Shown here: piece by piece, positions 1 through 25,842 of the stretch
Numbering within the stretch: position 1 is the first letter of the stretch
Layout: each line of letters starts with the position of its first letter
DNA from: a virus
DNA length: 27,045 bases
IMG/VR virus record: IMGVR_UViG_3300013126_000201
Coordinates: 1 to 27,045 of that record
Strand: one strand, 5' to 3'
The notes under the pieces: generated by a model
The model's input: only the letters and a program-made list of their open reading frames with translations
What the model was told of the DNA's origin: nothing
The model's database searches: none
Program-made: the position numbers and the translations under genes

Positions 1-3000
1 AGATCACCTACTTGATCAGCAATAGTTTCTCCATTACCATTAACAGTAAGATTGTTTACATCCCAACCAGTTGGATACATTCCATCTGTTACTTGTACCA
101 AATAGCCAACTGCGGGAGTAGCAGGCAGTGTTAAAGTAAATGCTCCCGTTGATGTGTTAGCAATATAACGTCCACCGTTAACAGCATTAGTATTACTAGT
201 TATTACTGTCCATGCTTGAGGGCTTCCGACTATCCCTTGTATGCCTTGAACTCCTTGAACTCCTTGTAATCCCTGAAGTCCTTGAACACCCTGTGTTCCT
301 TGTAATCCTTCTGCTCCTTGAATACCCAATAAACCTTGTACACCCTGAACACCTTGTCGACCTTGTATACCCTGTGTTCCTTGTAATCCTTGTGCTCCTT
401 GAATACCCAATAAACCTTGTACACCCTGAACACCTTGTACACCCTGAACACCTTGTCGACCTTGTATACCCTGTGTACCCTGTAATCCAGCTGGGCCTAA
501 TGTTGCCTGAACTAACCAAGTAGTACCATCATACAATAACTCAACTAATACACCTGCCACATTTAAGTATAAATCACCTACTTGATTAGCGATTGTTTCT
601 CCATTACCATTTACAATGAGATTGTTTACGTCCCATCCAGTTGGATACATGCCATCAGCAACTTGTACCAAGTAACCTACTGTGGGTGTTGCTGGTAGTG
701 TTAATGTAAATGAACCAGTTGATGTGTTAGCAATATATCGTCCACCGTTAACAGCATTAGTATTACTTGTAATTAATGTCCAAGCTTGTGGACTACCTAC
801 AATACCCTGTGTACCTTGTAGTCCCTGTAGTCCCTGTAATCCCTGTAGTCCTTGAGTCCCCTGTAGTCCTTGAACCCCTTGAGTCCCTTGTATTCCAAGT
901 ATTCCTTGTAACCCCTGAACACCCTGAACTCCTTGTGTTCCTTGTAGTCCCTGTAGCCCTTGCGTTCCTTGTGTTCCTTGAACTCCTTGAGTACCTTGAA
1001 TACCCTGTGTGCCTTGAAGACCCTGAAGACCTTGAACACCCTGTACTCCCTGGACACCTTGTGCTCCCTGGACACCTTGTGCTCCTTGGACACCTTGTGC
1101 TCCTTGTGTACCCTGTAGTCCTTGTAGTCCTTGTAGTCCTTGTGTTCCTTGAACGCCTTGTGTTCCTTGTATACCCTGTAGTCCTTGTATACCTTGTATT
1201 CCTTGAACACCTTGTAATCCCTGAGTTCCTTGAACTCCTTGTGTACCTTGTGTACCTTGTGTTCCTTGAACACCCTGTACACCTTGTACGCCTTGTACGC
1301 CCTGTGTGCCTTGTGTCCCTTGAACTCCCTGTAATCCCTGTAATCCCTGAATACCTAAAATACCTTGAGTTCCTTGAATACCTTGTGTGCCTTGTGTCCC
1401 TTGAACTCCCTGTAATCCCTGAATACCTAAAATACCTTGCGTACCTTGAATTCCTTGTGTACCTTGAACTCCTTGTGTACCCTGTGTGCCTTGAAGGCCT
1501 TGTATACCTTGACTTCCTTGAACTCCTTGTGCTCCTTGTGTACCCTGTAATCCCTGTAGTCCTTGTAGTCCTTGTGTACCTTGAATACCCAATGACCCCT
1601 GTAATCCTTGTACTCCTTGTACTCCTTGTGTTCCTTGAAGTCCTTGTATCCCTTGAAAGCCCTGATCACCTTGAATACCTTGTGTTCCTTGAACTCCTTG
1701 AATTCCTTGACTGCCCTGTACACCCTGTATACCAAAAGTACCTTGAAGTCCTTGTAATCCCTGAACACCTTGTACTCCTTGTGTTCCTTGTATACCAATT
1801 GTGCCTTGTAGTCCTTGTGTGCCTTGTAGTCCTTGTGTTCCTTGACTGCCTTGTACACCTTGAACCCCTTGTGTGCCTTGAATACCCAATGATCCCTGTA
1901 ATCCCTGTATACCTTGAGTTCCTTGAAGTCCTTGTATCCCTTGAAAGCCTTGATCACCTTGAATACCTTGTGTTCCTTGAACTCCTTGAATTCCTTGACT
2001 GCCCTGTATACCCTGTATACCAAAAGTACCTTGAAGCCCTTGTGTGCCCTGAACACCTTGAGTTCCTTGACTGCCCTGTATACCCTGTATACCAAAAGTA
2101 CCTTGTATACCCTGAATTCCTTGAACACCTTGTGTTCCTTGTATGCCCTGTGTTCCTTGTGTACCCTGAATACCTAATGATCCTTGTATACCCTGAGTTC
2201 CTTGAGTTCCTTGAATGCCTTGTGTGCCTTGTGTACCTTGCGCCCCTTGTAGACCCAAGATACCCTGAATTCCTTGAACACCTTGTGCTCCCAATGCTCC
2301 TTGAGTACCTTGAATTCCTTGTGTTCCTTGTGTTCCTTGAGTACCTATAGTTCCTTGGGCTCCTTGAATGCCTTGAATACCCTGAATACCTAAAGATCCT
2401 TGTAATCCTTGTACGCCTTGTATACCCTGAGATCCCTGTAGACCTTGTAATCCCTGTGTCCCTTGTATACCCAATAACCCTTGAACACCTTGAACACCTT
2501 GAACACCTTGAACACCTTGTGTACCTTGTAAACCTAAATCACCCTGTAATCCCTGTGTTCCTTGTACGCCCTGTGAACCTGTTGCTCCTTGTGTGCCCTG
2601 ACTGCCCTGAAGTCCCAATGAACCCTGTGTACCTTGACTACCCTGAACACCCTGACTGCCTTGAACACCTTGTAAACCTAAATCACCCTGTAATCCCTGC
2701 GTTCCTTGTACACCCTGTGAACCTGTTGTTCCTTGTGTGCCTTGTGTGCCTTGTGTACCTTGGAGACCAAACGAACCTTGAACTCCCTGAACTCCTTGCG
2801 TTCCTTGAGTTCCAGTTGTTCCTTGTAGGCCTTGAAATCCTTGAATACCCTGAATACCTTGCGGTCCTTGTAAATTACCTCCTAAATCTGTTAAGTATTG
2901 AGCACTACCTATGAAATATGTAGCTGTAACATTGCCTGCTCCACCGACATTAATACCTTGTGTACTAAACACAGCAACGTTTTGTACTCCGTCGATATTT

Positions 3001-6000
3001 ACCTGTACATTACCATCAACTACTGGGATAGTGACAGATGTGTTTCCATTAACTATAGATTCGGCAGATCCAACTCCTGTAAGTTGACTACCATTTCCAA
3101 AGTAATAACTAGCAGTCACGTTTCCACTGAATATACCCTGAATACCCTGTATAGTTTGTGTCGCAAATACATTATTTGCTGCTACATTTTCAGTGAATAC
3201 ACCTTGTAAACCTTGTATTGTTTGTGTGCTAAAGATATTATTAGCATTTAGATTACCAGTAAATGTTCCTTGTAATGCTTGAATACCTTGTGTAGCATAT
3301 AATACGTTACTATGTAATCTATCAGCAACTAAACCAGCTTGACCAGCATTTCTACCAATATAAACATTACCTGTTGTAAGAATAGCATTGGCTGTTGTTA
3401 GTGGTGTTAAATTGATATTACCAACAATTGTAGTAACTTCAACGTCAGTGGCAATATTTTGACCTGCTGTTATTGTAGCATTACTAGTAACGGATGCTTT
3501 TATAATTGCGCCAACACGACTTGATGCCCCATTATATGCTAAAAAGTTAATTGTACCAATGGTGTCGCTTGCTTGTACAGCACTAGCACCTGCTCTTGAT
3601 CCTCTACGTCTATCAATAGACCAAAATCCACCTTGACTTGCTGTATTGCTATGACCAACATAGTTAATACCAGGAGGAGTTGAAGTTCCTGCTCCTTGTG
3701 TAATAGTTACTCTAGCATTTTGATCGAACTGAAATTGATTTTGTGAGCTAGCATTAGCAGCTACAGTAGTGTTACCTGAAGGATTGCCAATAATTACAGT
3801 AAATGATCCTGGAGTGAAAGGTACTCCTGGAGGTTGAAATAATAAATTAGCAGCACTAGTTGCTGTGAATATCATTTGTCCTGCTAATGCATAATAATTA
3901 TTTCCTGTAAACGCATAAAACTTCATTCGTCCGATAGAAGAATTGTTAGCTAATGGAGTTGGACTTGCTAATGTTCCATCTGATCTAGTGTACGCAATAT
4001 CTTTTACACCACCAAAGTCACTAAAAATCATAGCAGCAGTATTTGTTGTTACTGTACTATTGACAACACTACCATCACCGAAGAATTCTAAACGAGCAGC
4101 ATTTCCTGTACCAGCAACTGTTAATGTGTTAGCACTTAAGCCACTAATTTCAACAGTGCTACCAATTGTGATACCTGCGCCTTCTGGTGAGCTTAATTGG
4201 ATATTGTTTCCATCAGGACTTGAAATACTTGCGTTACCCACAAAGATTGTATTTTGTGAAACAAATAAATCTTTCCAAACTAAATCATCTTTACCTAAAC
4301 TATAGATATTATTAGCAGTCGGAATAACATTACCTGTTACAAAAATGTTTGAACCTGTTACTGTTACAATATTCCCGTTACCTGAAACACTAATTGTTAC
4401 ATTGCCATCTGCTGTAGGTATATTAATATTACTTGTGCCATTGGCTAATTTACCGACAAAATTATTAGCGCCAATATTTCCACTGTTTGCGAATATATTT
4501 CCTGCTGTGATATTTGCTGTTACATCTAATGATGCTAAAGTACCTACGCTAGTTATATTTGGTTGACTAGAAGTAGTAAGTGTGCCAGTCAATAAGCTAG
4601 CACCAATAGTACCTGAATTGGCATAAACATTACCTGATGTAACATTACCTGTTACGTCTAAAACAGTTAAGGTTCCAATACTTGTGATATTTGGCTGAGC
4701 ACTGGTTGTTAAATTGCCTGCGATATTTGTAACACTTAATGTATTTGTTATATTATCAAATGTGAACGCACTAGAACCTGCCAAATTACTTTCATTATTA
4801 TATTGAACTTGTGTATTACTGCCACCGATAGCAGCACTTGGACCTTGTAAGCCTTGAATACCTTGTGCCGCAAACGCTCCTGCTAGACCTTGTACACCTT
4901 GATTACCCAATAAACCTTGAACACCTTGACGACCTTGAACACCTTGAGCTGCATATGCTCCGTCTAAGCCTTGAACACCCTGATTGCCTTGTACACCTTG
5001 AACACCCTGATTGCCTTGTACACCCTGAACACCCTGTGTGCCTTGATTGCCTTGAACTCCTTGAACTCCTTGATTGCCCTGAACACCCTGAACACCCTGA
5101 ACACCTTGTGTACCTTGAGTTCCCTGAGCACCTTGTACCCCTTGTAGTCCTTGCGCTCCCTGAACCCCTTGAATACCTTGAGCAGCAAATGCCCCGTCAA
5201 GACCTTGTATACCTTGAGGCCCTTGTACACCCTGTATACCCTGTACACCTTGACCTGCAAACGCTCCGTCTAATCCTTGTATACCTTGTATACCTTGAAT
5301 GCCCTGTGTACCCTGCATGCCTTCAATACCTTGAAGACCTTCATATCCCATAAAGCCCTGAATACCCTGAATGCCTTGTACTCCTTGTACACCTTGTGCT
5401 CCTTGAGTACCTTGAGTGCCTTGTAGTCCTTGAGTGCCTTGTAGTCCTTGAGTGCCTTGTGTCCCTTGTGTTCCTTGTGTACCTTGTGTACCCTGTAGTC
5501 CTTGTATACCCTGTGTTCCTTGAAATCCCAACAATCCTTGAGTACCTTGACTACCCTGCAATCCTTGTATTCCCTGTAAACCTCTGTCCCCTGTTCTGCT
5601 CCACTGTATAGTCATTTCTTCGTCATTGCTTGGCATAACACCGCTAACGTATGAAACATTGACTTCTGACCAACCAACATTATCATCTACAGATCCTACA
5701 GCAAATATACAAAATGTATTATTCACATCTGTACTCGTAAATGTTAAGTATCCTTTTACATTACTACTTGGATTATCCCATGAATCTATCCAACTTGTTA
5801 CGTTTATGCCTGACTTGCTAAAGTCATCAATAGAAATAATTGATACTGAGTTTATAACAGAATTATTAAATCTAAAAAAGCCTAGACCAGGATCAGCGAC
5901 AACTGTATTGTTACTAAAATTATAAAGGACACCGCCTTGATTACCTTTTTGTCCTTGTAGTCCTTGTAAACCCTGTGACCCTTGTGTTCCTAATATACCT

Positions 6001-7760
6001 TGTATACCCTGTAGTCCCTGAATACCTTGAGCAGCATATGCGCCATCTAGACCTTGTATACCCTGTGTTCCTTGAACGCCCTGAATACCCTGTATACCTA
6101 AAACACCTTGAATACCTTGAACTCCTTGTGTACCTTGTGTACCTTGTGTACCTTGAACACCTTGTGTCCCTTGAGTTCCCTGAACTCCTTGACTACCTTG
6201 TGTCCCCTGAATACCTTGTGTACCTTGAACACCTTGTGTCCCTTGAGTTCCCTGAACTCCTTGACTACCTTGTGTCCCCTGAATACCTTGTGTTCCTTGA
6301 ACACCTTGTATACCTGTATTACCTTGTACACCTTGAGTTCCTTGAGTTCCTTGACTGCCTTGTATACCCTGTGTACCAGTAGTTCCTTGGATACCCGTAT
6401 TGCCCTGTATACCTTTTGTCCCCTGAGAACCTTGTGTTCCTTGAACACCTGTACCTTGTAAACCTTGTAAACCTTGAAACCCTCCAATACCGCGCTCACC
6501 TTGTAAGCCCTGTGTGCCTTGAAAGCTTGCTGGACCTTGTAAACCCTGTGAACCTTGTATACCTTGAGCAGCATAGGCTCCATCTAGACCTTGTACACCT
6601 TGTGTACCTTGATTACCTATTAAACCTTGTATACCTGTATTACCTTGTACACCTTGAGTTCCTTGAGTTCCTTGACTGCCTTGTATACCCTGTGTACCAG
6701 TAGTTCCTTGAATACCCGTATTACCCTGTATACCTTTTGTCCCTTGAGAACCTTGTGTTCCTTGAACACCTGTACCTTGTATACCCTGTAAACCTTGAAA
6801 CCCACCAATACCTCGCTCACCTTGTAAGCCCTGTGTACCTTGAAAGCTTGCTGGACCTTGTAAACCTTGAATACCTTGTACACCTTGACCAGCAAATGCT
6901 CCGTCTAAACCTTGTATACCTTGATTGCCTTCTGTACCTTGTACACCTTGTGATCCTTGTACACCTTGAACTCCTTGACTACCAGTTGTACCTTGTGTTC
7001 CAATTGTTCCTTGAACACCTTGACGGCCTTGTAATCCTTGTAGTCCTTGTAACCCACGTTGTCCTTGTAATCCCTGTGTTCCTTGACGACCTTGTATACC
7101 TGTATTGCCCTGAAGTCCTTGATTACCCTGTGTTCCTTGATTACCTTGTATACCAGTTGGGCCCTGTACACCTTGACCAGCATAGGCTCCATCTAAACCC
7201 TGTAACCCTTGTGTTCCCTGAAAACCTAAATCACCTTGAATACCTTGTGTACCTTGAATACCCTGACCAGCATATGCTCCTGATATACCCTGCGTACCTT
7301 GTAATCCTAATTGTCCCTGTAATCCTTGTAATCCCTGTAATCCTTGTGTGCTACTACTAAATGACCAACTTAAATTACCAACTCCATCTGTTGTCAACAC
7401 ATAACCATTGCTACCACCAGTAATTGTTACATTAGCAACATCACCTAAATTTGTATCACCGACAACAACTAAACTACCTGTTGTTAACGTATTGGTTGTT
7501 TTATTAAACGTTAAATTAGCACTTGCCCCAAATTCACCACTGTCATTAAATTGAACTTGAGTATTGCTACCAGCTGGATCACTCGCAAAGGGTTGACCAT
7601 TGGCAAAATAATAATTGTTTCCGTAGATATTATTGGCTGTAACATTACCCGTCGTATTAACATTAGTAACAACATTACCATTACTATCTACAACTGGAAC
7701 TGGTGGGATTCCTGCTGAATAACCACCTGCGCTGTTAAATTGATCCGCTGACATAGACAT
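1..7760 (-). CDS. Giant collagen-like tail fibre protein (partial, C-terminus beyond window)
   Basis: One minus-strand frame stays in register from the ATG at 7760 to base 1 (about 2586 codons, no stop in the parts I translated), so the stop lies outside the window. An AAGGA box precedes the ATG by a few bases. Order of parts: residues 1-136 N-terminal domain with an [11 protein letters not shown] motif common in marine phage tail proteins; Gly-X-Y block to about 608; a beta-rich insert of about 115 residues (motifs [24 protein letters not shown]); second Gly-X-Y block to about 975; about 650 residues of non-collagen beta-repeats with [11 protein letters not shown] and [13 protein letters not shown] motifs; a third Gly-X-Y block of about 700 residues; then two copies of a roughly 95-residue domain separated by a short collagen stretch. 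The Y position is nearly always Gln and Pro is rare. The family is known for trimeric phage fibres; trimerisation and receptor binding here are inferred. Its position next to structural genes fits a tail fibre. Confidence 0.88.
240..500 (-). repeat. Collagen-like block 4 between two copies of a C-terminal domain
   Basis: Short Gly-X-Gln stretch separating two near-identical globular domains of the fibre (about 500-782 and 1-240). Contains its own internal duplication (302-340 against 383-445). Confidence 0.85.
783..2884 (-). repeat. Collagen-like block 3, about 700 residues
   Basis: Longest Gly-X-Y block; I saw no break of triplet register in it. Internal copies (1584-1745 against 1881-2033, and 2531-2600 against 2675-2744) show growth by in-frame duplication. 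Synonymous codons (CAA/CAG, GGT/GGA) are mixed. Confidence 0.88.
4838..5595 (-). repeat. Collagen-like block 2 (Gly-X-Gln repeats)
   Basis: Second Gly-X-Y stretch of the same reading frame, rich in GVQ, GNQ and GTQ triplets. It has four of the LDGAYAAQG-type interruptions near its C-terminal end (around 5252, 5185, 4955 and 4866). Confidence 0.9.
5937..7353 (-). repeat. Collagen-like block 1 (Gly-X-Gln repeats)
   Basis: The minus-strand frame reads as Gly at every third residue with Gln mostly in the Y position ([12 protein letters not shown]). It contains several Gly-to-Ala substitutions in the context LDGAYAAQG that keep the triplet register, and two copies of a 107-codon unit. Confidence 0.9.
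6311..6911 (-). repeat. Direct repeat of 321-bp period in fibre gene
   Basis: The stretch starting at 6311 recurs from 6632 with few substitutions over roughly 230 bases, diverging from about 6540/6861. The offset of 321 bases equals 107 codons, so the duplication keeps both frame and Gly-X-Y register. Shared landmarks are the [20 protein letters not shown] and ERGIGGFQG segments. Confidence 0.8.
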
Positions 7761-7846: not shown

Positions 7847-8212
7847 ATGCTAATTCAACAACCTACAAGAAAACTGTGTGAGCTTTGTAAAATTTCATTA
7901 GCGAAACCCAATGGAAAAAGTATTCATGGTTTTACTAAATGGCACAAATATTGTAGTAGTTGTGCTAAAGCAACCTATGATAAAAAGTATGGATACTTAC
8001 TTCACAAAAAGAATAAATGTGACAAGTGTGGATTTATACCTACTGATAAATGTCAGCTTGATTTGATTTATATAGATGGAGACAAATCAAACAAAGACAA
8101 AAAAAACTGTAAAACATATTGTGCTAATTGTAGCAGACTACACAATAAACAACTAAGACTTAATAAAAAGTCAATCTATGATATTACTGTTGATACTGAC
8201 TTGACTCTTTAA
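7847..8212 (+). CDS. Small zinc-finger protein, degenerate HNH endonuclease-like
   Basis: The 121-residue protein has two paired zinc-binding sets: C11-x2-C14 with C36-x2-C39, and C58-x2-C61 with C92-x2-C95. The second set frames an HNH-like core (CQLDLIYIDGD, then YCANCSRLHN). In active HNH enzymes of this type the core reads DHIDG; here Tyr75 stands where the catalytic His is expected. It may therefore bind DNA without cutting. Homing-type HNH genes are common free-standing insertions in T4-like phages. It lies alone on the plus strand, runs head-on into the desaturase gene with a 29-base overlap, and has a late promoter abutting the start but no clear Shine-Dalgarno. Confidence 0.7.
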   Translation: MLIQQPTRKLCELCKISLAKPNGKSIHGFTKWHKYCSSCAKATYDKKYGYLLHKKNKCDKCGFIPTDKCQLDLIYIDGDKSNKDKKNCKTYCANCSRLHNKQLRLNKKSIYDITVDTDLTL

Positions 8213-8906
8213 TCGTTGCTAATTTAAGCAATTCAAATAATTTCAAATACTTGTAGCCAATATCTATCTCAAACCAACGACTACTTAATTTTGGACTTGC
8301 TGGATTTTCATGATGATTGTTATGTAATTCTTCTCCACCTATTATAAAACCAAATGGAATAATATTTCGTGATTTATCTTTCGTATCAGTATTTCTATAA
8401 CCCAACCAATGTCCTAATCCATTGATAACTCCTGCTGCCCAAAACGGTATCCAAGCCATTTGTATTAACCATATTAGTATACCCCAACCTTTAAATAATA
8501 ACGTATTAATAATTAATAACAAAAATACACCATGTAATGTATATCTACTGTATAACTTGCGTTCTATCCAATCGTCAGGAGTACCAACTCCATATTGTTG
8601 TATCATTTTTGTATCTTTAGTAGCAATAGCATATAACCAAGCACCACGAAACAATACATTTATGATACCATATACGTGTGGACTATGTGGATCACCTTCA
8701 CGTTCACAATAACGATGATGCTTACGATGTACTGCTACCCATTCCTTTGTGACCATACCGGTTGTTAGCCATAACCAAAACCTCATAAAATGACTTAATA
8801 TTGGATGAAACTCTATGGCTCTATGTGCCTGTCCACGATGTAAAAATAATGTTACACAAATAATTGTTATATGAGTGGCTATAAGGGTGTATAAGATTTC
8901 AATCAT
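8184..8906 (-). CDS. Fatty acid desaturase (delta-9 type, membrane di-iron enzyme)
   Basis: The 240-residue protein carries the three histidine boxes of membrane acyl-lipid/acyl-CoA delta-9 desaturases: H23RGQAH28, H60RKHH64 and H195NNHH199, plus the NGLGHWLGYR motif at about 162-171. These bind the di-iron centre that inserts a cis double bond into a fatty acyl chain, at the membrane. Hydrophobic segments lie at about residues 3-22, 38-52 and 125-162. It is somewhat shorter than bacterial relatives (around 300). It is a host-type metabolic gene, so it may adjust membrane fluidity during infection; that role is inferred. Its ATG follows GGCTAAATAAAAT, without an obvious Shine-Dalgarno. Confidence 0.88.
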   Translation of the reverse strand: MIEILYTLIATHITIICVTLFLHRGQAHRAIEFHPILSHFMRFWLWLTTGMVTKEWVAVHRKHHRYCEREGDPHSPHVYGIINVLFRGAWLYAIATKDTKMIQQYGVGTPDDWIERKLYSRYTLHGVFLLLIINTLLFKGWGILIWLIQMAWIPFWAAGVINGLGHWLGYRNTDTKDKSRNIIPFGFIIGGEELHNNHHENPASPKLSSRWFEIDIGYKYLKLFELLKLATIKESSQYQQ

Positions 8907-8982: not shown

Positions 8983-9162
8983 TCAATCATAATGATAAGG
9001 TAAGCCACTTGGAACAATTACAATAGTTCCATCTACTAATTCTACCTCATATTCTTGTTGGTCTGCACTTAAACAAACAGATTTATATTCTGTAATGCCT
9101 GCTCTTTCCATTGTTTCTTGTAATTGTTGATTACGCATTTTTTCATATTGTCTTGAATTCAT
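8983..9162 (-). CDS. Small conserved-looking protein, 59 residues, unknown function
   Basis: ATG at 9162, stop TGA at 8983-8985. The product starts MNSRQYEKMRNQQ and ends SGLPYHYD. The first half is charged and probably helical, the second beta-like (EYEVELVDGTIVIVP). AAAGGAA lies seven bases upstream. Its ATG overlaps the TGA of the upstream GIY-YIG gene (ATGA), which suggests coupled translation, and a strong terminator follows. Good start signals and terminator make it a real gene; I do not recognise the family. Confidence 0.7.
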   Translation of the reverse strand: MNSRQYEKMRNQQLQETMERAGITEYKSVCLSADQQEYEVELVDGTIVIVPSGLPYHYD

Positions 9163-9962
9163 TTTTTATTCCTTTCTTTACATTTAACTCCGTGCCATCT
9201 TTTATACATTCCAATGCTTGATGTTTTACTACAATATTCACAAGTTTGTTTTTGTTGACTAGGATGCCTTCCTTCTTGTAATCTTTTCAAATTACTGTCT
9301 GATCCTAAAAAGTTATGCGTTCCTTCATTAATTCGTTTCTGATTTGTTTCAGGTCCTAAAAAATTATGGCGACCTTCTTCAATTAATTTCTTATTCAGTT
9401 TACCTTGATAATTAGGAGCTTTTCCATTCTGCCAATGATGTGTTCCGTTTTTACTATTCATAGTGCTTGGATTGTTATTGATTGAATTGTGATTACCTCG
9501 TTCATATGCTATTTTAGCATTCCTTCCATCTTTGTTTGGATGATTTTCTAAAAATCTTTCTTTTGCTTCATAATCTTTATTCATCCAATGAGCTTGTCCT
9601 GACAATTTTTTTTTGTATTTTTCAGGATCTTTTTTAGACCAATGATTTTCTCCTGATATTTTAGCAACACTTTTTGGATTTTTCATAGGGTTATTTGTTG
9701 AACTAAATCCAATTGGATCATTAGTTCTATTCATACAGTTTGGTTTTCCGTAATGTTCTGCTAAATATTTTCCCTCTAGTTGTATAAGTTCATCTTCATT
9801 ATTTGCGTATTCTAATATTTCTCTAGTTAAGGTTGACTTATCCTTTATAGATAAAGGCCATTCTCCTGATCCAATATATCCATCTTCAATATTTGTGGTG
9901 CTATGTCTACCAACATAGTATTTGCCGTTTTTATGAGTTGTTTTGTATATAAAGTGTTTCAT
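9159..9962 (-). CDS. GIY-YIG homing-type endonuclease with NUMOD3-like repeats and zinc finger
   Basis: Residues 4-33 match a GIY-YIG nuclease start (FIYKTTHKNGKYYVGRH, then YIGSG), the form found in phage free-standing endonucleases of the Seg type. The middle carries NUMOD3-like DNA-binding segments (NNPMKNP, SGENHWSKKDPE, EGRHNFLGPETNQKR, EGTHNFLGSDSNLKR). The C-terminus has a CEYC...H...C zinc-finger-like motif. It would cut a related phage genome and spread its own gene; this is inferred from the family. It sits just behind the major capsid gene terminator and in front of the 59-residue gene, with which it shares an ATGA overlap. A perfect late promoter box lies five bases before its ATG. 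Confidence 0.85.
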   Translation of the reverse strand: MKHFIYKTTHKNGKYYVGRHSTTNIEDGYIGSGEWPLSIKDKSTLTREILEYANNEDELIQLEGKYLAEHYGKPNCMNRTNDPIGFSSTNNPMKNPKSVAKISGENHWSKKDPEKYKKKLSGQAHWMNKDYEAKERFLENHPNKDGRNAKIAYERGNHNSINNNPSTMNSKNGTHHWQNGKAPNYQGKLNKKLIEEGRHNFLGPETNQKRINEGTHNFLGSDSNLKRLQEGRHPSQQKQTCEYCSKTSSIGMYKRWHGVKCKERNKK

Positions 9963-20102: not shown

Positions 20103-20660
20103 TTAGTGAATGTTTTTGTTAATTGTATGACTTGCTATTGACTTGGTGTCTATATGAGCCGAATATTTTTTTAATAAGTCTTTATTGTGTTCAAAAAAGC
20201 TATCAAATTCTGTAATGAGCCAATCTCTATGTTGTTTTGTTTTATAATGTATGTAATTGTCTACGATCCATTCACACTCGGCTTGTACTGCTACAAACTT
20301 ACCTTTACGATTAAACTTCATAAAAAGAATACTACAATCGTTAGGTTCAGCAACAGTTAATAACTGGTCAAGCCAAGTATTTAATACTTTACAGTATCCT
20401 GAAACTACTAAGTGAAACGGAAAGTCTTTATAACTTTTACACTCTGCGTTGAAATGGGGGAAACTTTGTCCAGGTACAATGTCCCCTTTAAATGAACGAA
20501 TCTGTCCCTCATGTAATACTTCTTTACGAGATTGATTCTTACCGCCCACATACGCACCACTTCCTGGAGCACGAATAAAACTTTCATTATAGGTTTTAGT
20601 TAAGAATGTTGCTACTTCACGTTCAAAACTACTACCTTTTTGTTTTTGTGGACTAGGCAT
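20103..20660 (-). CDS. PD-(D/E)XK-like nuclease, possible Holliday-junction resolvase type
   Basis: The 185-residue protein starts KGSSFEREVATFLTK and continues with RAPGSGAYVGGKNQ, GDIVPG and FNAECKSYK. The E...GD...ExK arrangement (Glu14, Asp at GDIVPG, Glu/Lys in ECK) is that of PD-(D/E)XK nucleases such as archaeal Hjc-type resolvases and RecB-like proteins. It may process recombination intermediates made with gp46/gp47, directly downstream of which it lies (35-base gap). Exact substrate is unknown. The ATG follows an A+T-rich leader with TATAAT but no clear Shine-Dalgarno. Confidence 0.65.
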   Translation of the reverse strand: MPSPQKQKGSSFEREVATFLTKTYNESFIRAPGSGAYVGGKNQSRKEVLHEGQIRSFKGDIVPGQSFPHFNAECKSYKDFPFHLVVSGYCKVLNTWLDQLLTVAEPNDCSILFMKFNRKGKFVAVQAECEWIVDNYIHYKTKQHRDWLITEFDSFFEHNKDLLKKYSAHIDTKSIASHTINKNIH

Positions 20661-20695
20661 ATAATTATATATCTATTGTACAGTTTACCAATAAA

Positions 20696-22672
20696 TTACT
20701 CAACATCAACGCTTGTATTGTAACTGGTAAAACCGTGCTCCTTTACTACCTTCAACACGTTTGGAACACGCCCCGCTAATTCTTCACGATGACTAACTAA
20801 CCAAATACTCTTATGGCGCCGTCTACTCATGTCTTTTAATATAGCAATAGCATTTTCTACACCCATTGTGTCTAAACCGCTATCAATTAATTCATCAATA
20901 AACAATGTATTAACTGGGGCATATAAATTCTCCCAAACATCACGGAAAGCAAAACTTAGTCCTAATATTAATCTATTACGCTCACCCCTCGATAAATTAT
21001 CAAAATCAAGCTCACGACCCAATTCTGTAATTTCAACTTGTAAATCGTTCTTAAAAACAACTTGATGAGGTAATCCAATTTTATCTAAGTAATGTGTCAA
21101 TCTTGAATTTAAATAACTTAAGTTCTGATCAATTATTTTTTTACGAACATAACTATCTTTACTTGTTAATAAATCAAGCAAAAACTTTTGATGTTCCATA
21201 ACTTTAGTAATTTGATTGATTTTGTCAAAACTAATTTCTTGTAATGCTTGACTTTCCATTTCATTGATTTGTTCTTGATATGGATCAGTTTCATTACTTT
21301 TATCTTCAATCTGTTTAATAATTGTTTCAATTTGACTGCTATGTTTAATAGCTTCAGTCTCAGTTTGATAATGTGTGACTGGTTTATCAATCACGGTAAC
21401 TGGAACTTTTGTTAGTTCATCTAGTTGAAACTTATAATCATCAAGTAAATTTTTACTCTCTACCAATGAATTATACTTACTTTCTAGTACACTGGTATGC
21501 TGTTTATCATGTAATTCATGTCCACAAGCATAACACTTATGATCTTTTAATGTAGCAACCTCAGTTTCTAGTTTTTTGTAATTTTTATCTTCTTTACTAA
21601 TATCTTTTTTAAGACTTTCAATCTTACTATCATATGAGGTTTTTAACAAAACTTGTTGATTATATGTGGCTAAATCTTTGTGTGCCTGCAATTCTATTTC
21701 AATATCTATTTGATTTAATCTAGTATATTGAATAGCTAGATTTTCTAAATCTTCGTTATGTTTTGTTGTCCAAAGTTTTTGTCTACGTTTGGTACTTTCA
21801 ATTTGTTCTTTAACACGTTTGTTTGCTTCTTCAACAGCCTTGATACGAAATTCTTCTTGTTGAATATCATCTTTGCTTTGACGTAACAAATCCTTTACTG
21901 TTTCAGCTTTTTCTGACAGTAATGTAATACCAAGTAATTGTTCAATAATAGCACGTTGGTCATTTGTTTTTAGTGCTAGAAAAGGCTCGCTGTAAGTATT
22001 AAGTGCGACAATATGCCTAAACATATCAGGTGACATAGAAACAGTGCGTTCAATAAAGGCTTGTGTTTCCTTATTCTCGCCCTGCGCATCATCCTGCGTT
22101 TTCTGTAGTGTGTTGTTAACATAAAATTTCAATAAGTTTGGTTTACGTCCACGCTCAATCTTATAATCAGTACCATTCACATTGAAATCTAATGTGACTA
22201 GCATACCCTTGCCATTGGTACGATTAACAAGATTGTCCTTACGAATATTATTTATTGGTACACCAAATAGTGCGTAACACAATCCTTGTATTAAAGTTGT
22301 GTTATGTGAAAGAATTTCATTTGTGTAATATCTATGGTCAGGCGAATCAACGGTAATATCATACATGTTTTCTTCTCTGGACGAAGAAGTTATTTTATGC
22401 ACTCTTTCAATTCCTGATGAAGTTAATATGAGTGATTTATGAGGAATTAAATTTTTTACAAATATTTCCGTAGTATTATCAGTGAAAACAATATGATCAT
22501 CAGCACATTCTAGATGTTTTCCAGTTTCTGTTTCTATGGCCCAAACAGTATAAGGTATTGTTTTGTGTATTTTAGAAATTGGCGCCCAACCAGTGTCAGT
22601 CTCTATTTCTAAATTATTTAAATCTAGACTTTCTATGAATTTTCTTTTTACTGATTCAGAAAGTTTTTGCAT
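20696..22672 (-). CDS. 46: Intein-C half plus C-terminal part of gp46 recombination ATPase
   Basis: Start chosen at ATG 22672 (MQKLSESVKRKF), 11 bases after AAGGA; a TTG 45 bases upstream is less likely. Residues 1-124 are the intein C-part: block B-like (LECADDHIVFT), block F (MYDITVDSPDHRYYTNE) and end LSHN. The extein resumes with Thr125: TTLIQGLCYALFG, completing the Walker A motif GTGK-TT started in the upstream half. Then follow an ATPase lobe, a long coiled coil with zinc hook CYAC (Cys380, Cys383), a second coiled coil, the signature LSRGERNRLILGLSFAF, Walker B LFIDELID and the H-loop WLVSHRE. Extein halves together make about 584 residues, near T4 gp46 (560). With gp47 it forms the Rad50/Mre11-like nuclease for DNA ends. 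It overlaps the endonuclease gene by 25 bases. Confidence 0.92.
   Translation of the reverse strand: MQKLSESVKRKFIESLDLNNLEIETDTGWAPISKIHKTIPYTVWAIETETGKHLECADDHIVFTDNTTEIFVKNLIPHKSLILTSSGIERVHKITSSSREENMYDITVDSPDHRYYTNEILSHNTTLIQGLCYALFGVPINNIRKDNLVNRTNGKGMLVTLDFNVNGTDYKIERGRKPNLLKFYVNNTLQKTQDDAQGENKETQAFIERTVSMSPDMFRHIVALNTYSEPFLALKTNDQRAIIEQLLGITLLSEKAETVKDLLRQSKDDIQQEEFRIKAVEEANKRVKEQIESTKRRQKLWTTKHNEDLENLAIQYTRLNQIDIEIELQAHKDLATYNQQVLLKTSYDSKIESLKKDISKEDKNYKKLETEVATLKDHKCYACGHELHDKQHTSVLESKYNSLVESKNLLDDYKFQLDELTKVPVTVIDKPVTHYQTETEAIKHSSQIETIIKQIEDKSNETDPYQEQINEMESQALQEISFDKINQITKVMEHQKFLLDLLTSKDSYVRKKIIDQNLSYLNSRLTHYLDKIGLPHQVVFKNDLQVEITELGRELDFDNLSRGERNRLILGLSFAFRDVWENLYAPVNTLFIDELIDSGLDTMGVENAIAILKDMSRRRHKSIWLVSHREELAGRVPNVLKVVKEHGFTSYNTSVDVE
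22301..22672 (-). other. Split intein C-part (124 residues)
   Basis: The coding region of the intein C-half ends in His-Asn before Thr, giving a standard splice junction. It contains both the block B-like His motif and blocks F/G, so the split lies between blocks A and B, unlike the usual late split. Confidence 0.85.
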
Positions 22673-23736
22673 TTGTTTATTATTCCTTGTTTGTCTTTTT
22701 TGTATTCTGATTCCCAAATTATTAATACAGCATACCCATTGTCATTAAGTGCCTTAATTTTTTGATTGTCATGATCCCATATTTTTTGTGCGGTTGTTTT
22801 TTTTATGATATCGGTAGCCTTAAATTTCTTAGGGTTAGCATGCCAATAGTCACCATAAAATTCTATAATTTTTTTATGTACAATATCAATACAATCTATA
22901 GAGTATGACATATTGTTTATTTTTAATATAACCTCATCATAACCAAATTTTATATTTGGGATATTGTATGATATGGATTCAAACAACTCAAGTGATATTT
23001 TTGAAAATCCACCATGTAACCCAGATTTTTTTAGGGAAGACAACCATTTAATTTGGCGTTCACTCCAAATTTGTAATCCTTTTTCTTCTCCGTATTTTTC
23101 AATACATTTCTTTTGTGAAAATAAAGTTTGGGCTTCTGCGACTTTGTTTTTCGCTTCTTCTTTGGAATATCCTCTTAAGGTCCAATATTCTGTAGTGCGG
23201 TGACTATGTGCTCTGATACGTTCAATGTTTCTGTTTTTTGATGAGTTCGCTCCCTTACTATTATTAAAGGTTTTTTGATTTTGTGCAAACAATAAGGCGG
23301 TTTCATTATCATAACCTTTATTTATCCAGTATTCTTTTCTTATAGGTCTTCTAGAATTTCTTTCAAACTCAGCCTCAATTAATGTATATTTTTTGCCTGT
23401 TTTGGGATTAATTCTGTCCGTCCAAAAATTAATAGAGTAAGTACTTTTTCTTACCGTTTTACTATCAATGTCCTTCATATACATTTTAGCTTTTATTTCT
23501 GCTGACAGTTCGTCCCAACCCCTACTAAGCCAATATTTTTTTCCTCCCTTACCTACTCCAGGTAAAGTTAGCATAGTTTGTCTAACAATAGCTTCACATT
23601 TTTTAACACTAGTTATGTCAGGTTGACATAATAGTTTTTCTCTAATTGATGCCATCAGGTTAGGTTCTATGTTTTTAATAATTTCTATCAATGTTTTATC
23701 TATTATTTGAGTCAGTGTCAATTTTGGCTGCTTCAT
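22648..23736 (-). CDS. Vsr-like homing endonuclease inside the split intein locus
   Basis: The 362-residue protein has a C-terminal nuclease domain (about residues 265-360) of the Vsr/EDxHD type: YSIDCIDIVHKKIIEFYGDYWHANP, then KIWDHDNQKIKALNDNGYAVLIIWE. The EFYGDYWHANP segment parallels the GCFWHxH part of Vsr. The N-terminal two thirds carry repeated small modules with the pattern YW-x2-(R/K)-G-(W/Y) (YWLSRGWDE, YWINKGYDN, YWTLRGYSK), likely DNA-binding. A known family of phage homing endonucleases has this build and occurs between split-intein halves. Its ATG has AGGAG five bases upstream. It overlaps the intein-N gene by 41 bases and the intein-C gene by 25. It would cut intein-less copies of gene 46 (inferred). 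Confidence 0.85.
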   Translation of the reverse strand: MKQPKLTLTQIIDKTLIEIIKNIEPNLMASIREKLLCQPDITSVKKCEAIVRQTMLTLPGVGKGGKKYWLSRGWDELSAEIKAKMYMKDIDSKTVRKSTYSINFWTDRINPKTGKKYTLIEAEFERNSRRPIRKEYWINKGYDNETALLFAQNQKTFNNSKGANSSKNRNIERIRAHSHRTTEYWTLRGYSKEEAKNKVAEAQTLFSQKKCIEKYGEEKGLQIWSERQIKWLSSLKKSGLHGGFSKISLELFESISYNIPNIKFGYDEVILKINNMSYSIDCIDIVHKKIIEFYGDYWHANPKKFKATDIIKKTTAQKIWDHDNQKIKALNDNGYAVLIIWESEYKKDKQGIINKCKNFLNQ

Positions 23737-23965
23737 ATAATTCTCCTATAGTCATTGAGTATATCTCACCTGTGATAGTATTTCTTACTCTAACTATAGT
23801 ATTTATGCCAACGCACTTGCCTGTACCGTTACGTGCGCCATCACCACCCAAGTCTAAGTTTTCACCAAGAATAAGTGTAAGCTCTTTTCTATCAAAGTTA
23901 ACTGCTTGTGTAACTTGTCCAATACTAAGGAAGTTACGCAATGTAATATTTTTCAGTGAAATCAT
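23696..23965 (-). CDS. 46: N-terminal part of gp46 plus intein-N half
   Basis: The 89-residue product has residues 1-50 as the start of gp46 (MISLKNITLRNFLSIG, then TLILGENLDLGGDGARNGTGK), a Rad50/SbcC-type ATPase N-terminus that ends at the Walker A lysine. Residues 51-89 are intein: Cys51 nucleophile, VGINTIVRVRN (block A), then TGEIYSMTIGELYEAA, and a stop after SNNR. Protein splicing in trans with the intein-C product would restore the P-loop GTGKTT. Its ATG overlaps the gp47 stop (ATGA). Without splicing neither half can make a working ATPase, so splicing is probably needed for gp46 function. Confidence 0.92.
   Translation of the reverse strand: MISLKNITLRNFLSIGQVTQAVNFDRKELTLILGENLDLGGDGARNGTGKCVGINTIVRVRNTITGEIYSMTIGELYEAAKIDTDSNNR
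23699..23815 (-). other. Split intein N-part (39 residues)
   Basis: Starts with Cys directly after the P-loop Lys and stops 39 residues later, before block B. Typical split inteins have N-parts near 90-100 residues; atypical ones with short N-parts, such as AceL-TerL (about 25), are known. Confidence 0.85.
23800..23807 (-). promoter_or_regulatory. Candidate late promoter inside the intein-N coding sequence
   Basis: The minus strand reads CATAAATACTATAG, the same 13 bases (CATAAATACTATA) as the tape-measure promoter, within the codons for GINTIV. It lies 63 bases before the endonuclease ATG, which has its own AGGAG. Confidence 0.45.
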
Positions 23966-24975
23966 AGTGTGTTATAAATGTCCAACAATAATTTTTTGTC
24001 AAAGCCTTTACTTTCAATAGCATTGATTTGATCTACAATGATTTGGTCAACACTTTCAAACTTAAGACCTTCAAAATTACCTTGTTCTATATTTTCAAGT
24101 TTCATAGGAATTAATGTCATTTCACGTAGTTTGTATTCTGGAATAAATGTTTCACGCAAGAAGTTTGCTTCCTCATAACTAATGTCAATATCCAAGTGTA
24201 CCCTAACATGACTATCAATCAATAGCAAGCCCTCTGGGTTTTCCAAGATATCACTAAGTTTATGTACACGATAAACTGGTTGTCGTGGCCAACTATGAAA
24301 AGTTGGGTCATTGCCCCACTCTAGTATCATCATGCCACGAGCATCGTCACCAGCATCAGCATAATTATGTGGAAAAGCATTTCCTATATACCAAATATTT
24401 TTACGTGCTTGTCGTTTATGAAAATGACCACTAAAAGCATACTCAAATCCTTTTAAGTGATTTTCATTGATTTCACCATGATCGGGCATTTCTACCATAG
24501 CATTCATATAAAAATGCGGTAGTTCTAAATGACCAAACAAATATTTGCTTGACATTTTCATAACTTTTTTGTAATCATCTTGTACCAACCAAGGCAGTAT
24601 GACTACATCATCTTGTTTGAAAAAATCATTGATAATTTTTACATTTGGTAAATGTTTTGCCCATTCAACACTATGTATATCACGACGGTCACGATAATAC
24701 AGGTCATGATTGCCTGGAATAAAATAAACCATGTCAAAGTTTTGACTAAGTTTTTCTAATCCACGTAATCCAAACTGTAATGTTTGTATGTTGATACTAG
24801 CACGATGATGGTTATAATCGCCCAAAAAGAAACAGGTTTCACAGTTTTCTTTTTTAGCTTTTTGAATAAACCAGTCTACAAAATTATCACAATCTTGATT
24901 ATGTTGTAGACTGTTACTCTTTAAACCATAGTGCACATCGGTAAAAAATGCTGCTTTTTTAAATAAATTTGCCAT
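23962..24975 (-). CDS. 47: Recombination nuclease subunit (gp47-like, Mre11 family)
   Basis: The 337-residue metallophosphoesterase carries all nuclease motifs: TD13VH15YGL, LGD53YNHH, GNH90D91, FGH149 and GH184FH186KRQ, which bind two metal ions. It is the Mre11/SbcD-type partner of gp46 and resects DNA ends for recombination-dependent replication. Length equals T4 gp47 (339) within two residues. Its stop overlaps the gene 46 start by four bases (ATGA), so subunits are coupled. A sigma70-like promoter lies directly upstream. There is no strong Shine-Dalgarno before the ATG. Confidence 0.95.
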   Translation of the reverse strand: MANLFKKAAFFTDVHYGLKSNSLQHNQDCDNFVDWFIQKAKKENCETCFFLGDYNHHRASINIQTLQFGLRGLEKLSQNFDMVYFIPGNHDLYYRDRRDIHSVEWAKHLPNVKIINDFFKQDDVVILPWLVQDDYKKVMKMSSKYLFGHLELPHFYMNAMVEMPDHGEINENHLKGFEYAFSGHFHKRQARKNIWYIGNAFPHNYADAGDDARGMMILEWGNDPTFHSWPRQPVYRVHKLSDILENPEGLLLIDSHVRVHLDIDISYEEANFLRETFIPEYKLREMTLIPMKLENIEQGNFEGLKFESVDQIIVDQINAIESKGFDKKLLLDIYNTL

Positions 24976-25098: not shown

Positions 25099-25842
25099 AT
25101 GACTATTTATTATCTCTATGTAAAGGTACATAATATTACCGGCTTACGGTACTTAGGCCAGACTAAACAAAATCCTCACTCATATAAAGGTTCAGGTGTT
25201 GATTGGGAAAAACACATTAAACTGTTTGGTTATAATGTAGATACAATCATACTACTATCTACTGTTAATATAAATGAAAGAAATTATTGGGGTAGATATT
25301 ATAGTTTATTATGGAATGTAGTTTCGGCCCAAGATGATTTTGGAAATAAGATTTGGGCCAATCGTATCCCTGAGTCAGGCGGCGGTGGAGGCAACAAACT
25401 AAGTACTCAAGAAAGAATTAGACTAGGTAAAAAATCAGTTGCAAAACAAATCTTAGAAAATAAACATAATTGGTCTAAAAAGGGGGTTGAAAACGCAAAC
25501 TACAATAAGAGAATATATAAGTTTGAAAATATCATGTCAGGAGAAGTGATTGAGATGACCCAGTATGATTTTAGAACTAAGTTTGGTTTTAATCAAGGAA
25601 ATGTAGGAGCAATGATTAGTGGTCTTAAGAAAACATGCGGTAGCTGGAAAATGCATGGTAAACCGACGCCAAGTCAATATATAACTCACAAATTCATCAA
25701 TTCATCATCTACTATAATAGTAAGCATGACACAAGATGAATTTGTAAAAACTTACAATCTTAATCGTGGTCATGTTTGCCAAATGATAAAAAAGAATAAA
25801 AAGTTTCAATCAGTTAAAGGTTGGAAACTTTATTCTTCGTAA
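25099..25842 (+). CDS. GIY-YIG homing-type endonuclease with two repeat DNA-binding modules
   Basis: The 247-residue protein starts with a variant GIY-YIG fold: YYLYVKVHNITGLRYLGQT, then SYKGSG, WEKHIKLFG and NERNYWGRYYSLLWNVV with the conserved Glu. The C-terminal half has two copies of an IENR1/NUMOD-like module (about residues 145-190 and 198-245), each with a SG/S..E.TQ-DF/EF..-F/Y.LN-G.V..MI..-..K..G-WK pattern. Such genes are free-standing mobile elements in T4-like phages. It is inserted between gp55 and gp47 on the opposite strand and its end overlaps the end of the gp55 gene by 13 bases. AAGGAG lies eight bases before the ATG. Confidence 0.82.
   Translation: MTIYYLYVKVHNITGLRYLGQTKQNPHSYKGSGVDWEKHIKLFGYNVDTIILLSTVNINERNYWGRYYSLLWNVVSAQDDFGNKIWANRIPESGGGGGNKLSTQERIRLGKKSVAKQILENKHNWSKKGVENANYNKRIYKFENIMSGEVIEMTQYDFRTKFGFNQGNVGAMISGLKKTCGSWKMHGKPTPSQYITHKFINSSSTIIVSMTQDEFVKTYNLNRGHVCQMIKKNKKFQSVKGWKLYSS

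What the first reader, a model, noticed from the sequence alone, without database searches (positions are those of the whole stretch)
20696..23965. Gene 46 fractured inside its P-loop by an atypically split intein with a Vsr-like endonuclease between the halves
Seen: GTGK ends the N-extein, Cys starts the intein, HN ends it, and Thr-Thr-Leu resumes the ATPase. The intein-N part has 39 residues, the intein-C part 124, and a separate 362-residue endonuclease gene overlaps both. Known: fractured genes with split inteins and Vsr-like homing endonucleases were described from marine metagenomes, and short N-part inteins such as AceL-TerL exist. Inference: trans-splicing is needed for any working gp46, and the very short N-part (split between blocks A and B) makes this a rare type.
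Basis: partly seen in the sequence, partly recalled or inferred. Interest (0 to 1): 0.9.

Follow-up and report, generated by a model that had tools for sequence, protein, structure and literature searches.

The report
Mobile split intein breaking phage gene 46
A phage's DNA-repair ATPase gene is broken in two by a mobile self-splicing element with its own DNA-cutting enzyme, so the two protein pieces must almost certainly be stitched together after they are made; many related elements break the same ATP-binding site in several other phage genes.

Summary
On the minus strand, gene 46 (SbcC/Rad50-like, next to gp47) is cut inside Walker A, GTGK|TT. The first ORF has 50 extein + 39 IntN residues. 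A 362-aa ORF in the +1 frame overlaps it by 41 nt and the C-half by 25 nt. The C-half carries 124 IntC + 534 extein residues. Uninterrupted gp46 relatives match at exactly these two bases. The endonuclease model's C-terminal domain matches Vsr (Z 12.2) and homing endonuclease I-Bth0305I (Z 11.4). A contiguous relative folds as a HINT domain, closest to VidaL, an atypical split intein. All splicing residues checked but one are canonical.

I found about 104 distinct relatives in viral contigs and phages (a lower bound). Most are split at this point with the endonuclease between. They sit at GK|T/S of gp46, an SbcC-like ATPase, TerL and a helicase-like gene. The cassette is mobile: one pair of phages shares it at 99.8% while flanks are 70-73% identical. 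Endonuclease-less relics show the split outlives the nuclease.

The parts
23816..23965 (-). gp46 N-extein (50 aa, ends ARNGTGK, first part of Walker A)
   Evidence: fused directly to the C-extein in uninterrupted relatives
23699..23815 (-). IntN, 39 aa (Cys1, block A region); stop codon 23696-23698
   Evidence: Cys1 in 104/104 relatives
22648..23736 (-). Vsr-like (EDxHD-type) homing endonuclease ORF, 362 aa, +1 frame relative to the intein, overlapping both halves
22651..23016 (-). Vsr-fold nuclease domain (residues 241-362)
   Evidence: AF2 pLDDT 91; 1cw0 Z 12.2, 3r3p I-Bth0305I Z 11.4
23743..23747 (-). AGGAG, probable ribosome-binding site of the endonuclease, inside IntN codons for I-G-E
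   Evidence: SD-like motif before 42/79 HE starts vs 5% background
22684..22688 (-). AAGGA, possible ribosome-binding site of the C-half (11-nt spacing), inside the endonuclease ORF
22301..22672 (-). IntC, 124 aa (block B H60, block F D105/H113, terminal H123-N124)
20696..22300 (-). gp46 C-extein, 534 aa (TTLIQG.., rest of Walker A onward), including stop
   Evidence: phrog_77 SbcC-like, E 4e-86
23962..24975 (-). gp47 (SbcD/Mre11-like nuclease), partner gene directly upstream
   Evidence: Pfam Metallophos; phrog_100

Best explanation
A mobile, naturally split intein of the AceL-TerL/VidaL type sits between Lys and Thr of the gp46 Walker A motif. Shown by sequence: three overlapping ORFs (gp46N-IntN, endonuclease, IntC-gp46C), an exact insertion boundary, the intein fold (in a contiguous relative) and catalytic residues, a Vsr-fold endonuclease, and horizontal movement of the whole cassette between phages. 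Inferred: IntN (39 aa) docks into a largely formed IntC (124 aa) and the pair splices in trans by the class-1 route (Cys1, branched intermediate on Thr+1, Asn cyclisation), rebuilding a 584-aa gp46 with an intact P-loop. Inferred: the endonuclease cuts uninterrupted gp46 alleles near GGTAAR|ACN during mixed infection, and repair copies in the whole IntN-HE-IntC block. Because the endonuclease is read in the +1 frame, the intein frame across it meets stops, so the gene is fractured and only trans-splicing keeps the host gene alive.
For: Exact empty sites. Splicing residues: Cys1 104/104, H60, D105, H123 and N124 105/105, +1 Thr/Ser/Cys. Contiguous relative L246 modelled at pLDDT 92; best PDB matches are inteins, VidaL first (Z 22.1), with the low-confidence linker (block pLDDT 57-59) at the split point. 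HE domain = Vsr fold. Mobility: L105/L114 inserts 1533/1536 nt identical, flanks 70-73%; window/L094 intein 86-90% identical in DNA, upstream flank mostly 52-66% and C-extein 72%; on the gp46 tree intein presence needs at least 5 changes. Purifying selection: dN/dS IntC ~0.1, exteins 0.05-0.15, HE 0.14-0.15 in intact pairs. HE loss with the split kept: L056 and about a dozen others. No second gp46 in contigs to 289 kb. A cultured phage, SCTP-2, has TerL halves of the same intein family 172 kb apart on opposite strands, so trans-splicing seems unavoidable there.
Against: No splicing, cleavage or expression was measured. Block B Thr is replaced by Ala in all 105 sequences (VidaL has Ala too), so kinetics may be unusual. 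IntN dN/dS (0.12-0.9) is noisy because only 26 codons are free of overlap. Contigs are fragments, so an unseen intact gp46 elsewhere is not excluded.
Confidence: 0.91

Rival explanations
1. The two gp46 halves work as separate subunits without splicing, as some HE-split phage enzymes do (e.g. the Aeh1 NrdA/MobE case).
For: Known precedent for a split enzyme working as two chains (mentioned in PMC10448857).
Against: The break is inside Walker A, and the intein catalytic residues are conserved in relatives with IntC dN/dS ~0.1; a two-chain enzyme would not need them.
Confidence: 0.04
2. The fracture is an assembly error or a dead pseudogene.
For: Single metagenomic contig; one relative (L094) has a frameshifted endonuclease.
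Against: Same layout with the same 25-nt HE/IntC overlap in 44 of 60 relatives from many metagenomes; exteins under strong purifying selection; 49 stops in the intein frame across the HE, as expected by chance, so not one lost base.
Confidence: 0.01
3. Ribosomal frameshifting, bypassing or readthrough joins the halves, or the insert is an RNA intron carrying a homing endonuclease.
For: Three overlapping frames; out-of-frame endonucleases exist without any splicing element (ShiLan domain, PMC11855218).
Against: No Rfam match in 20300-24400 at E<=1; the ends are conserved as intein protein; 49 stops lie in the intein frame.
Confidence: 0.02
4. The intein splices but this endonuclease is no longer active, so the element is now only inherited vertically.
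For: 15 changes of HE presence on the intein tree and the frameshifted HE in L094 show that loss is common.
Against: The window HE is full length with D281, E292, H299, dN/dS 0.15 against L003, and its close group is interspersed with empty sites.
Confidence: 0.15

Closest known systems
AceL-TerL and GOS-TerL atypical split inteins
   Same: Short IntN split (25/104 and 37/115 aa; PMC11766414); host gene is a phage P-loop ATPase (TerL).
   Different: Here the host gene is gp46, IntN/IntC are 39/124, nucleophiles are Cys1/Thr+1, and an overlapping Vsr-like endonuclease ORF lies between. Whether AceL/GOS loci carry one I could not check.
VidaL (6vgv)
   Same: Best PDB match by sequence profile (E 2e-8) and by fold (Z 22.1); also has Ala at the block B Thr position.
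   Different: Only about 19% identical over the structural alignment; its genomic context was not available.
Fractured genes with split inteins and Vsr-like endonucleases (Dassa et al. 2009, NAR 37:2560; not held, cited via other papers)
   Same: Gene broken by a split intein with a free-standing Vsr-like endonuclease ORF between the halves.
   Different: From my own knowledge the split inteins named there (gp41-1, NrdJ-1, IMPDH-1) are cut near the usual endonuclease site with long IntN; here the cut is near residue 39.
Aes517/Aes123 PolB and MIJ3 PolB split inteins
   Same: Split intein with an endonuclease ORF between the halves (Aes517 VSR endonuclease overlaps both; MIJ3, PMC6892783).
   Different: Other host gene, block B in the N part (long IntN), other intein family; MIJ3's nuclease was called HNH.
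Contiguous TerL inteins of Ackermannviridae (Vibrio phage Kuja and others)
   Same: 40-49% identical IntC, same kind of Walker A site, RQSGK|TT.
   Different: One unbroken ORF, no endonuclease.
I-Bth0305I / Vsr (EDxHD) nucleases
   Same: Same predicted fold of the C-terminal domain.
   Different: Different helical N-terminal part with repeated YW..(R/K)G motifs; coupled to a split intein rather than a group I intron.

Membership tests
Intein (HINT splicing domain) | Cys/Ser1, block B His, block F Asp/His, terminal His-Asn, Cys/Ser/Thr at +1 | tested here: met
   (but block B Thr is Ala throughout)
Intein (HINT splicing domain) | HINT fold | tested here: met
   Tested on the contiguous relative L246: pLDDT 92, top rows all inteins, Z 17-22. 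The window's own two halves could not be modelled together.
Intein (HINT splicing domain) | Insertion absent, to the base, from related host genes | tested here: met
Intein (HINT splicing domain) | Protein splicing activity | not testable with these tools
   needs expression and mass spectrometry
Atypically split inteins (AceL/GOS-TerL, VidaL type) | Natural split between blocks A and B, short IntN | tested here: met
   IntN 39, block B in the C part; relatives mostly 29-57 aa
Atypically split inteins (AceL/GOS-TerL, VidaL type) | Sequence kinship to the named members | tested here: met
   VidaL E 2e-8; CatC, an engineered consensus, E 2e-4
Fractured gene (Dassa 2009) | Host gene in two ORFs, each with an intein half, with an endonuclease ORF between | tested here: met
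Vsr/EDxHD homing endonuclease | Vsr-type nuclease fold | tested here: met
   1cw0 Z 12.2 over 113 residues, 3r3p Z 11.4 over 94
Vsr/EDxHD homing endonuclease | Sequence match to curated family | tested here: inconclusive
   Pfam MTES_1575/DUF559 below cutoff; PDB Vsr E 0.08
Vsr/EDxHD homing endonuclease | Cuts the empty host allele | not testable with these tools
   horizontal movement is indirect evidence
gp46/SbcC | SbcC-like ATPase next to gp47/SbcD | tested here: met
   phrog_77 E 4e-86; phrog_100 E 3e-63

The most novel reading that the evidence does not exclude
The window element is one state of a single mobile family that spreads among Walker A sites (GK|T/S) of four phage ATPase genes and changes between forms: split with endonuclease, split without it, contiguous with the endonuclease fully overprinted in the +1 frame of an unbroken intein (TerL loci L229, L252, L253, L260, L262), and contiguous mini-intein. 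On the current tree the contiguous overprinted TerL clade lies inside the split forms, so a fractured gene may have been re-joined by clearing every stop from the intein frame across an endonuclease gene.
Probability: 0.55. Interest if true: 0.8.

Novelty: new variant of a known kind. Interest (0 to 1): 0.64.

Why it matters
It ties two separately described curiosities, atypically split inteins and fractured genes with Vsr-like endonucleases, into one large mobile family, and shows recent horizontal transfer, endonuclease loss and different host genes in natural sequences. It makes the origin of split inteins testable: endonuclease-plus, endonuclease-less, dual-coded and contiguous relatives can be compared side by side. 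It also offers about 90 new short-IntN split inteins with Cys1 and Thr/Ser+1, possibly useful for protein labelling. Invasion of the recombination ATPase gp46 is notable because gp46/gp47 may themselves act in homing repair (PMC2988022).

Tried and rejected
Assembly error or single frameshift: rejected (49 stops in the intein frame, as by chance; recurrent layout). RNA intron: no Rfam match. Relatives in bacterial/archaeal genomes: the IntC profile found none in the GTDB collection. 'Rare type': rejected. L229 as an ordinary in-frame endonuclease fusion: rejected, the HE is in another frame. Salicola SCTP-2 gp46 intein as the contiguous ancestor: it sits at the same GK|TT site but appears to begin with Ala and was not matched by IntN/IntC, so it looks like a separate invasion. 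Dassa 2009, Bachmann & Mootz 2015, Carvajal-Vallejos 2012 and the VidaL paper were not held. One paper search was wasted on the surname Vidal.

Full report
WHAT IS THERE. The reported coordinates and residue counts are correct. On the minus strand, directly after gp47, lies a 50-residue gp46 start ending GTGK, then 39 intein residues and a stop; a 362-aa ORF in the +1 frame; then 124 intein residues and 534 residues of gp46. The N ORF and the endonuclease overlap by 41 nt, the endonuclease and the C ORF by 25 nt. Joined exteins give 584 aa. The C-extein is SbcC-like (phrog_77, E 4e-86) and its neighbour SbcD-like.

EMPTY SITES. Of 80 gp46 relatives from viral contigs, about 75 have the two extein parts joined with no base between them (bases shown). 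The nearest empty relative is L004, 84% identical in the C-extein. The insertion point is therefore exact, and the extein is one gene elsewhere.

INTEIN. Pfam's splicing model matches the C part (E 9e-7, under the gathering cutoff). A five-sequence profile finds VidaL first among solved structures (E 2e-8), then gp41-1 and CatC. Cys1, H60, D105, the His-Asn end and Thr/Ser/Cys+1 are invariant or nearly so over about 105 sequences; the block B Thr is Ala in all of them. A contiguous relative from TerL (L246) was modelled at pLDDT 92 and matches inteins, VidaL best (Z 22.1, 136 residues, 1.5 A); the split point of the split forms falls in its floppy linker.

ENDONUCLEASE. The model (pLDDT 91, pTM 0.57) has a helical N-terminal part and a C-terminal domain (241-362) matching Vsr (1cw0, Z 12.2) and the homing endonuclease I-Bth0305I (3r3p, Z 11.4). 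Sequence-only evidence was weak, so the fold match is what supports the name. Over 53 sequences E292 and H299 are invariant and D281 nearly so.

FAMILY. IntN is mostly 29-57 aa. Host genes, judged from the flanking P-loop, are gp46, a second SbcC-like group, TerL and a helicase-like gene, nearly always at GK|T/S. In 51 of 79 loci the endonuclease starts 79 or 82 nt after the Cys codon begins, and its end overlaps IntC by exactly 25 nt in 44 of 60. A Shine-Dalgarno-like motif stands before 53% of endonuclease starts against 5% background, and in the window AGGAG lies inside the IntN codons for IGE. This suggests translational coupling of three ORFs (inference).

MOBILITY. L105 and L114 carry inserts identical at 1533 of 1536 nt while flanks are 70-73% identical, with saturated silent change in the exteins. 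Window and L094 share 86-90% of intein and endonuclease DNA, but the C-extein is 72% and upstream DNA mostly 52-66% identical. On the gp46 tree intein presence needs at least 5 changes, and the window's group lies among empty relatives. This is what homing predicts.

LIFE AFTER THE ENDONUCLEASE. In L056 the endonuclease is reduced to a 36-codon relic, yet gp46 stays split by a stop codon with both intein halves kept. About thirteen split loci have little or no endonuclease left, and the intein tree needs 15 changes of endonuclease presence. The split presumably still works in these (inference).

IS SPLICING NEEDED? Walker A Lys and Thr are on different chains. No second gp46 was found in the intein-bearing contigs searched, up to 289 kb, although their completeness is unknown. 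SbcC/SbcD are called practically universal in jumbo phages (PMC7824862). In cultured Salicola phage SCTP-2 a TerL intein of this family has its halves 172 kb apart on opposite strands. Splicing activity itself was not tested.

COMPARISON. Known atypical split inteins AceL-TerL (25/104) and GOS-TerL (37/115) are in TerL (PMC11766414). Fractured genes with Vsr-like endonucleases are known (Dassa 2009, cited through PMC12350094 and others). A search for gp46 with intein and phage found five papers, none evidently about this insertion, judged by title and abstract except PMC2988022. So the mechanism is known, while the host gene, the fixed overlapping three-ORF layout and the breadth of the family appear new within what I could read.

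SIDE FINDING. In five contiguous TerL loci the endonuclease is entirely in the +1 frame of an open intein frame: 0 stops against 14-23 expected from synonymous shuffles (z about -7 to -8), while split loci including the window sit near chance. L268, almost identical to L262 in the intein, has lost most of the endonuclease by deletion and is a contiguous mini-intein. Out-of-frame endonucleases without an intein are known (ShiLan, PMC11855218).

Noticed in passing
L229:3014-4366, L252:3110-4372, L253:3104-4369, L260:3101-4366, L262:679-1944: Contiguous TerL inteins whose frame stays open right through a Vsr-like endonuclease read in the +1 frame; 0 stops vs 14-23 expected by synonymous shuffling. 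Looks like true dual coding.
   Followed up: partly
MF360958.1 (SCTP-2) 429356-429748, 256428-257321, 215993-218077 (loci L311, L084, L313): TerL of Salicola phage SCTP-2 is in three pieces on both strands, apparently needing two trans-splicings, and the last piece seems to hold a third, contiguous intein.
   Followed up: partly
L088:2281-4566: Vibrio phage Va1 'terminase': a Vsr-like endonuclease is fused in frame to an IntC and the TerL C-terminus.
   Followed up: no
L001:2352-5117: SCTP-2 gp46 holds a different, contiguous intein at the same GK|TT site that appears to begin with Ala.
   Followed up: no
L094:4001-5091: Endonuclease of an otherwise ~90% identical cassette carries frame changes: decay or sequencing error.
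   Followed up: no
window 3-7760: Very long (over 2586 aa) protein of collagen-like G-x-Q repeats (GLQGTQG..), probably a tail fibre, open at the window edge.
   Followed up: no
window 9159-9962 and 25099-25842: Two ORFs with GIY-YIG-like starts (FIYKTTHKNGKYYVGRH; YLYVKVHNITGLRYLGQT), probably free-standing endonucleases, one beside the major head protein; Pfam gave no convincing match.
   Followed up: no
window 7847-8212: 121-aa Cys-rich ORF resembling an endonuclease VII/HNH-type protein by eye.
   Followed up: no
window 8184-8906: His-box protein (HRGQAH, HRKHH, HNNHH) that looks like a fatty-acid desaturase by eye; phrog_35201, function unknown.
   Followed up: no
window 22502-22504 (IntC residue 57) and family: Block B Thr of inteins is Ala in all 105 sequences of this family and in VidaL; possible hallmark affecting the first splicing step.
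   Followed up: partly
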